Made by a program: the position numbers and the translations under genes. Positions 5,598 through 24,572 of a stretch of DNA of 24,572 bases are shown here, one piece after another. The notes under the pieces were generated by a model. The model was not told the origin of the DNA. It worked only from the letters and a program-made list of their open reading frames with translations, and made no database searches. Origin of the DNA: a virus; IMG/VR virus record IMGVR_UViG_3300042463_000005, positions 1 to 24,572 of that record. One strand, 5' to 3'. Every line of letters starts with the position of its first letter. Positions within the stretch are counted from its first letter, which is position 1.

Positions 5598-6548
5598 TTA
5601 TACTGTGAACTTTACGATTTCCGCTGGGAATGCAAAGTTTACACCCATTTTGAACTCAGATACAAAACGCACTTGATCAGCTTCTTTTGCATAGAAAATT
5701 TCAAATCTTTCTTCTTCATTCAATAAGTCTGTACCAATGAATAAATTAGAAACTCTCATTGAATAGATCTTGTTTGTTCCGTTCAAACCTTGTACAGCAA
5801 TCACCTTGATAGATGTACCTGGCAATACGAACTCAGAATCAGCTTTGCCATCATATGAATAGCTGAACATGTTTGCATTCTTTAATGCAATTGTGTAAGT
5901 TCTGAAAACATCCATACCACAGAAAATTGCAGTATCATCCTTTGCTACTACCTCAGCTGGGATTGCTTTATAAACTGCATCAAATACAGCTATAACATTT
6001 GCAGCAGTGATTGCAGTTGCAGGTGTACCGAAATAAGTAGTAGTGTTTGCATCTACAATAGCACCGCCAGCAGCAGTTGCTAATTTGATCACACCATCAA
6101 ACTTGTTTAAGTTACCATTTGCAGATGCTGTATCACCTTGCCATAAACCGATTTCTAATTGACTAGCAATTTTTTCAGTTTTTCTAGTTGAATACTCCTC
6201 AGCAAATACTACTGAATCATATTGAGATCCAGCTGGTAAAGCCTTTTGCAAATATGTTCTTTCTAAATCTTTAGGACATAAAGCCTCATTTACTTTCATT
6301 TTACCTACAGTCACAGTTCTTTGTGTGAAAGTAGTAGTACCACTTGCATTGAAACCGCAAGATGATCCATCCTGAAAAAATGCGTCTGTGTCCATGATGT
6401 TAATCTTTTCGCTAGATTTAACACCTACCATCACATTGCCCTGTGATTTGATTAAGCTAGCAGTTTTGCTACCTAATACAGATGATGCTACTAAAAGGTC
6501 TTGATTTTCCTTTGTGTATGTAGCTAGTGCTGATACGTCAAATGCCAT
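5598..6548 (-). CDS. Major capsid protein, HK97-fold type
   Basis: This 316-residue protein starts MAFDVSALATYTKENQDLLV and would form the icosahedral shell. Features that fit an HK97-like capsid are a short helical N-terminus, an E-loop-like stretch (SSEKINIMDTDAFFQ, TFTQRTVTVGKMKV), a long helical spine (AEEYSTRKTEKIASQLEIGLWQ), an A-domain-like segment (IFCGMDVFRTYTIAL, FVLPGTSIKVIAV) and a terminal VRFVSEFKMGVNFAFPAEIV strand region. The gene order protease, scaffold-like protein, capsid supports the call. It lacks the long delta domain of HK97 capsids, in keeping with the separate scaffold-like gene upstream. The leader is A-rich (AACAAATAAC) with no Shine-Dalgarno. CpG count is 12 in 960 bases (5581-6540), higher than in the terminase, with some CGN arginine codons. 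Confidence 0.9.
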   Translation of the reverse strand: MAFDVSALATYTKENQDLLVASSVLGSKTASLIKSQGNVMVGVKSSEKINIMDTDAFFQDGSSCGFNASGTTTFTQRTVTVGKMKVNEALCPKDLERTYLQKALPAGSQYDSVVFAEEYSTRKTEKIASQLEIGLWQGDTASANGNLNKFDGVIKLATAAGGAIVDANTTTYFGTPATAITAANVIAVFDAVYKAIPAEVVAKDDTAIFCGMDVFRTYTIALKNANMFSYSYDGKADSEFVLPGTSIKVIAVQGLNGTNKIYSMRVSNLFIGTDLLNEEERFEIFYAKEADQVRFVSEFKMGVNFAFPAEIVKFTV

Positions 6549-19149: not shown

Positions 19150-19571
19150 TTTCTGTCAATTTGCTCTAGCTTTCTGATAGCCCACTCAATCCCTGCATCA
19201 CCGCCCCATGCATCCCACATCAATCCACCACATCCCTCAGAATATGGCACATCTTTATGCTGCTGATGTCTTTTGAAAGATGCCATCCTTGCTATTGTAT
19301 CTCTAGATATTGGCTCTCTATTTGCTAGCTGGTTTGCCCTGGCTTTGCCTGTAGCTTCACCACATGATCCCCAGCCATTCTCATCAGCCCATTTCAATGC
19401 TCTTTTTGCATTGTTTGTGGCAGCCTCAGGATAGTCAGTGAATGAATCCTCTGCAAACTTACCTGATGCTAGTATGGCTTGCCACACCTCTATGGCTTTC
19501 TCTTTTGTGTCATAGATACATTCACCTGTTCCTACTCTCCATTTCCCATTTGTGCATTGTTTTACTGGCAT
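19146..19571 (-). CDS. Small phage domain protein (141 aa), unknown function
   Basis: The N-terminus (MPVKQCTNGKWRVGTGECIY) is a Cys-containing beta-type segment, followed by a helix with EKAIEVWQAILASGKFAED. The C-terminal half carries a distinctive pattern: YPEAATNNAKRALKWADENG, then TGKARANQLANREPISRDTI, then ARMASFKRHQQHKDVPYSEG and CGGLMWDAWGGDAGIEWAIR. I know this pattern as a domain attached to phage head proteins such as XkdF-like proteases and portals. Here it stands alone and 11 kb from the protease gene. Function is not known to me. It overlaps the glycosyltransferase stop by 10 bases and the HNH start by 4. Confidence 0.72.
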   Translation of the reverse strand: MPVKQCTNGKWRVGTGECIYDTKEKAIEVWQAILASGKFAEDSFTDYPEAATNNAKRALKWADENGWGSCGEATGKARANQLANREPISRDTIARMASFKRHQQHKDVPYSEGCGGLMWDAWGGDAGIEWAIRKLEQIDRK

Positions 19572-20572
19572 AAACTTTTATATAATTGTTCCCTTAATTT
19601 ATTTATTTTGTCCAGGTGAAAATTCTGAATACACCATTCATAGTTTGCCTCACCTAGTTCCTTTCTATAAATAGCATCATTTGCTAGTTTTTTTAGTTCC
19701 TTATACCAGTCTGTTTGATAGTTGACCTTTGCCACATAGGGGCAGCCGCTGTATGGATCTACATTGCTCACCAATACTGCTATTTTCTTTGTAGCAGCTT
19801 CTAGTACTTTTAGATTTGATTTCATGCCATTGAACTTGCTAGATACCAGTGGCACTACTGAAATGTCAGCCTCATTGTAGAAATTCATGTACTCCATAAT
19901 TGGTAAAGCCTTTTTGACTGCACCTGGCATCTTTAGCCCACAGGTAAAATCATGAATCATTCTGTGCCATACCATCTTGCTGTACTCATTGGCAGGATCA
20001 TAGCCACACAATGTGAAATGCATTTTGTTAACTAATGATTTGTCAGATAGAATCTTTTTGAATGGATTGCCTAGCAATGCCACATCCTTTTGATGTGTGA
20101 TAGATCCTGTGTAGACTACCCTGACATTTTCACCTGGTACATGTACATCTATGAACTGATCTTTCCCAAATGGCAAAGCATTAGGGATCACATGTACATT
20201 CTGATTCATTTGACTGATCTCATATCTTAGCTTCATGTTTGTACAGGTCACCATGTCTGCTGCCTTAATATGATCAATGATAGGCTGTGCATCATATTGG
20301 TCATACAGGATATGCCATGGATCTAGATCCCAGTAGTCATCTACATCTAGAATCAATTTGAATCCATACTTTTCTTTGTATGCAATTAGATCAGTGATGT
20401 GACATGTAGGTATGTATCTATTGACTACTACTAGGTCAAATCCCTCAGATAGTATTTCATCATTGATAGTATCTGTGAAATAGGCATAGTCTTTTGCCAT
20501 GTAGTAGATAGGCAGCATCAATCTATGATACCCCACCCCACTGTTTTGCTGTGTGATTACTAGTAGTCTCAT
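19562..20572 (-). CDS. Glycosyltransferase, GT4-like (336 aa)
   Basis: This protein has a GT-B fold pattern. The N-terminal domain begins MRLLVITQQNSGVGYHRLML, with the acceptor-loop Gly-rich motif, and includes FDLVVVNRYIP and KLILDVDDYWDLDPWHIL. The C-terminal domain holds VHVIPNALPFG, VRVVYTGSITHQKDVALL, ADISVVPLVSSKFNGMKSNL (equivalent to the donor-binding E-x7-E region of GT4 enzymes) and KVLEAATKKIAVLVSN. It would transfer a sugar from a nucleotide donor to a glycan or protein. The start overlaps the stop of a 36-residue membrane peptide (ATGA). With the GT2-like and acyltransferase genes in the same operon, surface-glycan modification is the likely theme. Confidence 0.83.
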   Translation of the reverse strand: MRLLVITQQNSGVGYHRLMLPIYYMAKDYAYFTDTINDEILSEGFDLVVVNRYIPTCHITDLIAYKEKYGFKLILDVDDYWDLDPWHILYDQYDAQPIIDHIKAADMVTCTNMKLRYEISQMNQNVHVIPNALPFGKDQFIDVHVPGENVRVVYTGSITHQKDVALLGNPFKKILSDKSLVNKMHFTLCGYDPANEYSKMVWHRMIHDFTCGLKMPGAVKKALPIMEYMNFYNEADISVVPLVSSKFNGMKSNLKVLEAATKKIAVLVSNVDPYSGCPYVAKVNYQTDWYKELKKLANDAIYRKELGEANYEWCIQNFHLDKINKLREQLYKSLCQ

Positions 20573-22436: not shown

Positions 22437-23057
22437 TTACTGATTATTTTTTGCATTTGTTTGCATGTAGTTTTTCATTGCATCTCTGAATGATTCTTTT
22501 TCTGTATCTAGTGACATCCTGTTTGAATCACCAGCAGCCTTGTATTGTGAATGATGCTCATCTCTTTTGCTTATAAATGCCTGGTGTCTTTGTTCTCTGT
22601 AGACTTCTAGCATCTCAAAAAATGTAGGCATGTCCATACGATCATAGACTTTGCCATATTTGAATCTAGGCATACCATCCAAAAACAGCATGATGTCCTC
22701 AAATGCTAGCTGATCCTCAGCAGATGAATCAATCAATGCATAGGCTAATTCTAGCACCTGATCTGCATTCATTCCTACTCTTAGATTAAAATTTGACAAT
22801 GCCTTTGTGATAGCTTTTGCCACTACAGCTGCAATCTTATCTGTGCCATAGCTTACAGCTAGTGCTGGCAGTCTGCTGCTCACAGGGATGTTCTCAATGA
22901 TAGCCAGTGGCATTGGATTCCCTTTGTCCTTGTACCTGCATAGTTCATTGAATACCTGGCCAGTGCTACCCACCATGACTGCGTTTAAAAATTGCCTCGT
23001 TAAGCTGTTGGTCTGTGATATGGCTAACTCTAGTTTGCTGTGTTTTTGTATTTGCAT
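22437..23057 (-). CDS. Conserved early protein, probable replication accessory (206 aa)
   Basis: The start at ATG 23055-23057 gives MQIQKHSKLELAISQTNSLT; an in-frame TTG at 23078 preceded by GGAAAGG is an alternative. The protein overlaps the replication gene by 92 bases in another frame. It is helical, with NPMPLAIIENIPVSSRLPAL, KIAAVVAKAITKALSNFNLR, an acidic DQLAFEDIMLFLDGMPRFKY and a Lys/Glu-rich tail. I associate the arrangement with conserved Bacteroidota phage early proteins, some annotated as helicase-loader-like or of unknown function, but cannot name it. Its place directly after the initiator-like gene suggests a replication role. Confidence 0.65.
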   Translation of the reverse strand: MQIQKHSKLELAISQTNSLTRQFLNAVMVGSTGQVFNELCRYKDKGNPMPLAIIENIPVSSRLPALAVSYGTDKIAAVVAKAITKALSNFNLRVGMNADQVLELAYALIDSSAEDQLAFEDIMLFLDGMPRFKYGKVYDRMDMPTFFEMLEVYREQRHQAFISKRDEHHSQYKAAGDSNRMSLDTEKESFRDAMKNYMQTNAKNNQ

Positions 23058-23706
23058 TATTTTCGTTTTTAAGTTCAAATAAACCTTTCCATCCTTTTGC
23101 CATAGATTGACTGATGATCATGATTGCTGCATCTTCAATTCCTTTTGACAATGTAGCTAATTCATTTAGGCTGGCTTGTTCTGACTGTGGTGACCTGAAA
23201 TTGAATTTATGTTCAGTAGATTTGTATGCTTTCCAGTTATTCCACCAATTCTCAAATCTTGCATTAGGCCATGGCAAAACTATATCAAATTCTATTTTAG
23301 ATTTTTTGACTTTCTTTTTTTCAATTTTAATTAAATCTATATTTATATTTTCATCTTCATTTTCATTTTCCATATGTGATGACATATGTTTTTCATATGT
23401 AGATGATATGATGTCTTTTTTGCTAATTCTATTAGTTTTTCTGCTTAAAGTAAAGTTTTTTCGTTTATTGATTTCATCCTCTACTCTTTGATTGTAGTAC
23501 AAACTGTTCTCATCTTTTTTAAATTTTGCGAAAATGTCAGAATCATATGTTTTACATATGTGCATCATATGTTTTTCACTTAGCCTGCCATGTAGATGCT
23601 GCATGCACAAAAGTCTGATGTATTTGCCTACCTGTTCATCACTCATAAATGCCACACCAGTGATGAAATCACTTGAATAAAATAGAAATGCTGGATCTTT
23701 TGCCAT
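22966..23706 (-). CDS. Replication initiator / helicase-loader-like protein (246 aa)
   Basis: The start at ATG 23704-23706 gives MAKDPAFLFYSSDFITGVAF, the usual beginning of DUF1376-like proteins; an in-frame ORF upstream reads through a hairpin and is rejected as the start. Residues 1-80 form the winged-helix-like domain (EQVGKYIRLLCMQHLHGRLS). A charged, low-complexity linker follows (ENENEDEN, KKKVKKSK). The C-terminal helical domain (ENWWNNWKAYKSTEHKFNFR; AAIMIISQSMAKGWKGLFEL) resembles DnaD-like primosome parts. Phage proteins of this design bind the origin and load helicase. Six CATATG sites lie inside this gene, as in lambda O. The linker and central segment are A/T-rich, consistent with an unwinding element. 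Confidence 0.8.
   Translation of the reverse strand: MAKDPAFLFYSSDFITGVAFMSDEQVGKYIRLLCMQHLHGRLSEKHMMHICKTYDSDIFAKFKKDENSLYYNQRVEDEINKRKNFTLSRKTNRISKKDIISSTYEKHMSSHMENENEDENINIDLIKIEKKKVKKSKIEFDIVLPWPNARFENWWNNWKAYKSTEHKFNFRSPQSEQASLNELATLSKGIEDAAIMIISQSMAKGWKGLFELKNENNANTKTQQTRVSHITDQQLNEAIFKRSHGG
23371..23399. repeat. CATATG iteron cluster A (three sites)
   Basis: CATATG occurs at 23371, 23383 and 23394, spaced 12 and 11 bases, each followed by GT(G/T/A) on the plus strand. CATATGTTTTTCA at 23383 is repeated exactly at 23566. Part of a candidate origin inside the replication gene. Confidence 0.65.
23544..23571. repeat. CATATG iteron cluster B (three sites)
   Basis: CATATG occurs at 23544, 23555 and 23566, exactly 11 bases apart, and the three sites fall in three different codon phases of the gene, so the repeat exists at DNA level and not as a peptide repeat. 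It pairs with cluster A across an A/T-rich 145-base spacer. Confidence 0.7.
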
Positions 23707-24339: not shown

Positions 24340-24572
24340 TTAAAATGGTAAATCATCAAATGATTCAGTAGCAGGTGCAGTTTTTTTAACTGGTGCAGAT
24401 CCTGTCTGCTCTTTTGCCTGTACTGTTTTAAGATTTCCCACATACTTTTTTGGCTCACCTGCATCTCTCTGCTCTTTTGTTTGGCTGATCTGGATGCTGG
24501 CATTATTCCCAAATTTGTCCGCTTCATCATTGATCCATACATTGATGTTCAAATAAGACTTTCCAGTCTTTT
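24340..24572 (-). CDS. SSB-like protein, C-terminal part (partial)
   Basis: The frame is open to the right edge, so the N-terminus is missing; the visible codons read KTGKSYLNINVWINDEADKF and so on, and the TTG at 24550-24552 need not be the start. The segment NASIQISQTKEQRDAGEPKK with KYVGNLKTV fits a small beta-barrel-type protein, and the Ala/Pro/Lys linker ends in ESFDDLPF, an acidic tip like the C-terminal DDDIPF of single-stranded DNA-binding proteins, which recruits partner proteins. Together with the replication gene nearby this indicates an SSB-like function. Ends in a TAA at 24340-24342. It could also be another OB-fold-like early protein. Confidence 0.72.
   Translation of the reverse strand, partial: KTGKSYLNINVWINDEADKFGNNASIQISQTKEQRDAGEPKKYVGNLKTVQAKEQTGSAPVKKTAPATESFDDLPF

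What the first reader, a model, noticed from the sequence alone, without database searches (positions are those of the whole stretch)
23371..23571. Helically phased CATATG iterons inside the replication gene: candidate phage origin
CATATG occurs six times in 201 bases, in two clusters of three (23371, 23383, 23394 and 23544, 23555, 23566) with spacings of 11-12 bases, one helical turn. The three sites of cluster B lie in three different codon phases, so the coding sequence does not explain them. A 13-base extension (CATATGTTTTTCA) is exact at two sites. Elsewhere I noticed only single CATATG sites (for example 5852 and 14808). Iterons within the initiator gene parallel lambda O, and the sequence between and left of the clusters is A/T-rich, as an unwinding element would be. 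Origin function is inference.
Basis: partly seen in the sequence, partly recalled or inferred. Interest (0 to 1): 0.75.

Follow-up and report, generated by a model that had tools for sequence, protein, structure and literature searches.

The report
Phage start-of-replication site inside its gene
A phage gene for a replication-starting protein carries, inside its own coding sequence, evenly spaced copies of the short DNA word CATATG next to the most A/T-rich stretch of the fragment; relatives keep such words at the DNA level whatever the protein says, which makes this very probably the phage's replication origin and suggests a job for a protein family of unknown function (DUF1376).

Summary
In relatives found without using the sites (78 non-redundant genes), CATATG is realised wherever the protein allows it (HM 86/87, xY 71/71, xI[CW] 34/46) against 65%, 11% and 12% in neighbouring ORFs. 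Of 105 spacings under 40 bp, 104 are 11, 12 or 22-24 bp. Relatives without CATATG carry other, clade-specific, mostly palindromic words in the same two gene regions. Most share a tandem 6-mer (GAAAAT/GAAGAT/GAAACT) just after the last iteron, almost without synonymous variation; in the window this is part of its most A/T-rich stretch. In 11 of 20 relatives scanned the next gene is a DnaB-type helicase, a primase-helicase or a DnaC/IstB-like loader. Best reading: an origin (iterons plus unwinding element) embedded in the gene of its own initiator, laid out as in lambda O and SPP1 gene 38 but in a DUF1376-type protein, with a second iteron cluster inside the codons of the DNA-binding domain. Binding and origin activity are inferred. 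GC skew does not switch, so that prediction was not met. New variant of a known kind.

The parts
22966..23706 (-). initiator gene, 246 aa, ATG at 23706; N-terminal DUF1376-like domain, disordered linker, C-terminal adaptor domain
23416..23694 (-). codons 5-97: N-terminal domain, predicted HTH-like helices plus hairpin and long helix; presumed iteron-binding domain
   Evidence: AF2 pLDDT about 90, pTM 0.76; DNA binding inferred
23544..23571 (.). iteron cluster B: CATATG at 23544, 23555, 23566 (11-bp spacing), three codon phases, in codons 46-55 of the DNA-binding domain
23371..23399 (.). iteron cluster A: CATATG at 23371, 23383, 23394 (12 and 11 bp), in linker codons 103-112
23405..23410 (-). 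degenerate site CATATC (GATATG on +) in 11-bp register with cluster A
23347..23370 (-). tandem 6-mer GAAAAT GAAAAT GAAGAT GAAAAT directly after the last iteron; 6-mer conserved without synonymous change in relatives
23276..23400 (.). presumed DNA unwinding element: most A/T-rich 120-bp region of the 24.5-kb window
   Evidence: unwinding inferred
23293..23415 (-). codons 98-138: linker predicted disordered, carries cluster A, the 6-mers and much of the A/T-rich stretch
   Evidence: pLDDT below 50 at residues 100-138
23095..23262 (-). codons 149-204: C-terminal domain, within the part matched by the PHROG 'replication initiation O-like'; replaced by unrelated-looking C-termini in relatives
22437..23078 (-). 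next gene (start uncertain), distantly similar to the DUF6633-like gene in the same place of relative L061; other relatives have helicase or loader genes here

Best explanation
This is the phage's replication origin, embedded in the gene of its own initiator. The N-terminal domain binds the CATATG iterons, each one helical turn apart, so that bound subunits lie on one face of the DNA in two groups about 150 bp apart; the nucleoprotein complex opens the adjacent A/T-rich tract that begins with the tandem GAAAAT 6-mers; the exchangeable C-terminal domain recruits the replicative helicase or its loader, encoded by the next gene in many relatives. Shown here: DNA-level conservation of iterons, spacing, the 6-mer block and A/T-richness; clade-specific iteron words at the same places; helicase or loader gene next door in relatives. 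Inferred: that this protein binds these sites, unwinding, and origin activity.
For: Unbiased relatives (query without HM) keep the sites: realised 86/87, 71/71, 34/46 in the three phases against 20/31, 24/210, 17/141 in other ORFs of the same loci; spacings 11 (68), 12 (22), 22 (10), 23 (3), 24 (1). Pooled 201 sites against 103.9 in synonymous shuffles. Relatives lacking CATATG carry other words there, often in both clusters: GCCGTGGCA at 136, 148, 313, 325 (L122), AGATAACCC (L138), AAGCTA (L148, L149), TTAACCAA (L154), and ATACCA in the linker (L117, L118). Six of seven such words, CATATG included and fixed beforehand, exceeded all 200 synonymous shuffles in a further sample of 44 genes, e.g. 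GCCRYGGC 33 against 2.9. The 6-mer run uses GAA 164/164, AAT 114/114, GAT 24/24, ACT 22/24; further sample GAA 63/63, AAT 48/48, GAT 12/12; E[NTD] runs of other ORFs use GAA 71/82, AAT 26/40. A/T peaks at 0.85 just after the last iteron in 46 relatives. Where an endonuclease domain is inserted in the linker (L089, L108), iterons and 6-mers move together about 240 nt down the gene. Next gene is DnaB-like, Toprim-DnaB or IstB/DnaC-like in 11 of 20 relatives. PHROG O-like match 1.7e-7; BFVD structural neighbours include 'Replisome organizer' and 'Replication protein'.
Against: No binding, unwinding or replication data. GC skew does not switch. No significant structural match to a solved DNA-binding or initiator protein. 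Pfam DUF1376 match of the window protein itself is below cut-off. TACCRYGGTA was not found in the second sample, and a generic word test was significant in only 6 of 44 genes there.
Confidence: 0.87

Rival explanations
1. The sites are binding sites of the initiator, but serve autoregulation (intragenic operator or roadblock) or titration (handcuffing) rather than initiation.
For: Intragenic arrays could block transcription; the clusters lie well inside the gene; plasmid initiators can have both roles (general knowledge).
Against: A repressor array does not need an adjacent conserved A/T-rich 6-mer tract or to stay beside it when the linker is lengthened. Not exclusive of origin function.
Confidence: 0.06
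2. The sites are recognised by another factor (host protein, restriction-modification, packaging), not by the encoded protein.
For: CATATG is a palindrome and a known restriction site (NdeI, general knowledge); it is under-represented outside these genes (60 against 115 expected).
Against: The word differs between clades of the same protein family and clusters on the tree of the N-terminal domain (20 changes, shuffled mean 27.1, none of 200 as low), at the same two gene places; under-representation outside is ordinary for palindromes in these loci (rank 21 of 64).
Confidence: 0.05
3. The repeats are a by-product of the protein: conserved His-Met, Ser/Thr-Tyr and Glu-Asn motifs plus A/T-rich codon usage.
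For: The amino acids are themselves conserved; synonymous shuffles alone still give about half the sites.
Against: Synonymous realisation near 100% in two phases and 74% in the third, against 65%, 11% and 12% elsewhere; helical spacing across phases; same DNA word encoded by different amino acids; AF2 predicts the linker as disordered.
Confidence: 0.01

Closest known systems
Bacteriophage lambda ori-lambda inside gene O
   Same: Origin in the middle of the initiator gene, 4-6 iterons followed by an A/T-rich region (PMC7466680); N-terminal DNA-binding and C-terminal P-binding domains joined by a flexible linker, ori within gene O (PMC6022878); partner gene P acts on the helicase DnaB.
   Different: Here the iterons are short palindromic words one helical turn apart, with an additional cluster inside the codons of the DNA-binding domain, a conserved 6-mer run, and a DUF1376-type N-terminal domain; no sequence relation to lambda O was tested directly beyond a PHROG O-like match of the C-terminal half.
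SPP1 oriL inside gene 38 (gp38)
   Same: Direct repeats plus A/T-rich unwinding element within the initiator gene; works with loader gp39 and helicase gp40 (PMC6316719).
   Different: SPP1 also has a second origin oriR elsewhere; here the only CATATG arrays found are in the one gene. Homology to gp38 was not tested.
DUF1376 (PF07120) proteins, e.g. YdaU of the E. coli Rac prophage
   Same: 33 of 54 relatives match DUF1376; ydaU is followed by ydaV, annotated as putative ATP-binding; Rac has an active origin, oriJ (PMC3945230).
   Different: No paper on a function of DUF1376 was found in the library searched. Whether oriJ lies in ydaU was not established; repeats in the ydaU linker were seen by eye only.
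Iteron plasmids and DnaA-type origins (DUE, DnaA-trio)
   Same: Repeats plus A/T-rich element; short-period repeats in the unwinding region (general knowledge).
   Different: Repeats lie within the coding sequence; the 6-mer differs from the DnaA-trio; no DnaA boxes were sought.

Membership tests
Initiator-gene-embedded iteron origins (lambda O / SPP1 gene 38 kind) | repeats inside the gene of the presumed initiator | tested here: met
Initiator-gene-embedded iteron origins (lambda O / SPP1 gene 38 kind) | repeats selected at the DNA level | tested here: met
Initiator-gene-embedded iteron origins (lambda O / SPP1 gene 38 kind) | A/T-rich element directly beside the repeats | tested here: met
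Initiator-gene-embedded iteron origins (lambda O / SPP1 gene 38 kind) | helicase or helicase-loader gene next to the initiator gene | tested here: inconclusive
   met in 11 of 20 relatives; in the window the next gene is DUF6633-like, role unknown
Initiator-gene-embedded iteron origins (lambda O / SPP1 gene 38 kind) | encoded protein binds the repeats; replication starts there | not testable with these tools
   needs binding and replication assays
Lambda O protein family | sequence homology over the protein | tested here: inconclusive
   PHROG 678 'replication initiation O-like' 1.7e-7 on residues 107-257 of the 272-aa ORF (81-231 of the protein) only; no Pfam O-protein match
DUF1376 (PF07120) | score over the curated cut-off | tested here: not met
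   window protein 15.6 bits against 30.1; 33 of 54 aligned sequences match at E<=0.01, and relative L154's gene is over the cut-off

The most novel reading that the evidence does not exclude
A whole superfamily of phage initiators (DUF1376 type, in phages of Bacteroidota, Bacillota and others) carries its origin in two places of its own gene, one of them in the codons of the very domain that reads the sites, so that recognition domain and recognised DNA must change together; iteron words switch between clades while a near-universal 6-mer (GAA-RMT) at the unwinding element stays fixed, perhaps as a single-strand binding element comparable to the DnaA-trio.
Probability: 0.45. Interest if true: 0.8.

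Novelty: new variant of a known kind. Interest (0 to 1): 0.64.

Why it matters
It gives a concrete, testable function (origin-binding initiator) to a widespread phage protein family of unknown function, lets origins be read directly from sequence in many uncultured phages, and offers a natural series in which an initiator's DNA-binding domain and its binding word appear to have changed together many times, with the binding word partly encoded in that same domain.

Tried and rejected
relatives were found with patterns that contain HM (EKHMMHIC, HMENENED) and are therefore biased; they were not used for statistics and were replaced. GC-skew test: no switch in the window or in three longer relatives; uninformative because nearly all genes lie on one strand. 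PDB fold searches gave no significant match. No relative in plasmids; in the phages collection one N-terminal relative, MT837034.1, without CATATG. PF14297 (Lin1244) was absent from the three genomes tried, and PF07120 was rare in 295 genomes of one class, so generality to those families was not pursued. A generic exact-word test in the second sample was weak (6 of 44 at p<=0.05): iterons of those clades look like degenerate palindromes. The second sample is not fully independent: L256 is the same contig as L106, L175 is close to L152, and one query pattern (RLSDKAIK) touches the first bases of the iteron zone.

Full report
Observation. All coordinates of the finding are right: CATATG at 23371, 23383, 23394, 23544, 23555 and 23566, otherwise only at 5852 and 14808; the 13-base extension is exact at two sites. 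The sites lie in gene 22966-23706 (-), 246 aa, at gene nt 136, 147, 158, 308, 319, 331, in phases 0, 2, 1, 1, 0, 0. A further degenerate site CATATC at gene nt 297 keeps the 11-bp register. Chance does not explain the cluster: at most 4 sites in any 201 bp in 300 simulated windows, and p=0.007 against synonymous shuffles of the gene.

The gene. The protein has a weak DUF1376 match below the cut-off, which many relatives share more strongly (33 of 54; L154's gene over the cut-off), and a PHROG match to 'replication initiation O-like' over its middle and C-terminal part. AlphaFold gives a confident N-terminal domain (helices 11-18, 23-39, 44-51, 56-59, a hairpin at about 63-72, a long helix 73-97), a linker of low confidence at 100-138 and a helical C-terminal domain at 149-204. 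The order of elements resembles a winged helix-turn-helix, but no solved structure matches significantly; predicted viral structures that match are DUF1376, Lin1244-like, 'Replication protein' and 'Replisome organizer' entries. Cluster B lies in codons 46-55, that is, in helix 44-51 and the following turn; cluster A lies in the linker.

Relatives. A first search used peptide patterns containing HM and is biased; it was set aside. Two searches with queries free of the iteron codons gave, with the window gene, 78 genes below 80% identity over the N-terminal 110 aa. In these, wherever the protein permits CATATG within the two zones, it is nearly always there: 86/87 (His-Met), 71/71 ([SPTA]-Tyr-[VADEG]), 34/46 (x-Ile-Cys/Trp); in other ORFs of the same loci 20/31, 24/210 and 17/141. 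Spacings between neighbouring sites are 11 (68), 12 (22), 22 (10), 23 (3), 24 (1); only one other value below 40 occurs. Density is 201 in 56.6 kb of these genes against 60 in 397 kb of flanks. This is selection on DNA in all three reading phases.

Other iterons. Genes without CATATG pairs carry other words at the same two places: GCCGTGGCA (L122), GCCACGGC (L125), ATACCA/TACCACGGTA (L117, L118), AGATAACCC (L138), AATACAAT (L140), AAGCTA and AAGCGACCC (L148-L152), GGTTAACC/TTAACCA (L154-L157), ATTAGGT (L120, L126). Several occur in both clusters of one gene. Word class is clustered on the N-terminal-domain tree but changes many times (20 changes, shuffled mean 27.1); the tree is short (100 columns) and many forks are unresolved. 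These words were found by inspection, so they were fixed and tested in a further sample of 44 non-redundant genes: six of seven patterns, CATATG included, exceeded all 200 synonymous shuffles, while TACCRYGGTA did not occur. The sample is not fully independent (see tried and rejected).

The 6-mer block. Directly after the last iteron the protein reads ENENEN, EDED or ETET. The codons are GAA 164/164, AAT 114/114, GAT 24/24, ACT 22/24, against 75%, 62%, 72% and 28% in the rest of the genes; in the second sample GAA 63/63, AAT 48/48, GAT 12/12, while similar runs in unrelated ORFs use GAA 71/82 and AAT 26/40. GAARMTGAA occurs in 64 of 78 genes, including most with other iterons. Repeat slippage could share codons within a run, but hardly across clades. 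A/T content peaks at 0.85 within 45 bp after the last iteron in 46 relatives, and in the window the most A/T-rich 120 bp of all lies here. In L089 and L108 a T5orf172/MUG113 domain is inserted in the linker; iterons and 6-mers have moved together to nt 547-600. The two elements thus behave as a DNA unit not tied to a protein position.

Context. In 11 of 20 relatives scanned the gene right after (or overlapping the end) is DnaB-like (L036, L059, L088, L134, L161), Toprim plus DnaB_C (L030, L102, L118) or IstB/DnaC-like (L123, L140, and L129 just below the cut-off). In the window the next gene is distantly similar to a DUF6633-like gene in the same place of L061 (22% identity); its role is unknown. 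C-terminal domains differ between close N-terminal relatives, and single members match DnaB_2 or Phg_2220_C, as for an exchangeable helicase-recruiting part.

Mechanism. The best account is an in-gene origin: initiator bound to iterons on one face of the helix, opening at the 6-mer/A-T tract, helicase recruited by the C-terminal domain. Lambda and SPP1 have the same layout (PMC7466680, PMC6022878, PMC6316719). Shown here is the DNA-level architecture and its conservation; binding, opening and initiation are inferred. The GC-skew prediction was not met, but with nearly all genes on one strand it has little force. Autoregulation is possible in addition.

Novelty. Origins inside initiator genes are known. 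New here, as far as the held literature shows, are the DUF1376-type setting, the second cluster inside the DNA-binding domain's codons, the clade-wise switching of iteron word, and the codon-invariant 6-mer block. Subscription literature was not searchable, so earlier description cannot be excluded.

Noticed in passing
L106:3001-3975; L089:2998-3990; L108:203-1165: Endonuclease-type domains (HNH in L106, T5orf172/MUG113 in L089 and L108) are inserted in frame in the initiator's linker just before the iterons, as if mobile elements home to the origin.
   Followed up: partly
window 24340-24570 (-): Open reading frame cut by the window end, ending in ESFDDLPF, like the acidic tail of single-stranded DNA-binding proteins; no family match.
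   Followed up: no
window outside 22966-23706, and flanks of relatives: CATATG is under-represented outside the initiator gene (2 sites in the rest of the window, where dinucleotide shuffles give about 16 for the whole), but many other palindromes are depleted more strongly in these loci.
   Followed up: partly
L167:4120-4977 (E. coli K-12 ydaU): The DUF1376 gene of the Rac prophage has GTTCAAAC/GTTGAA/TTTGAAC repeats in its linker, with AAAGATACAGATAAAGAT after them, a similar layout seen by eye; Rac has an active origin, oriJ.
   Followed up: no
window 19562-20572 (-): Glycosyltransferase gene (PHROG 7162, 2.3e-56) in the phage fragment.
   Followed up: no
L183:1501-2025: DUF1376-type start followed by an HNH-like C-terminus and no CATATG, TTAGGT words or 6-mers: possibly a truncated initiator fused to an endonuclease.
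   Followed up: no
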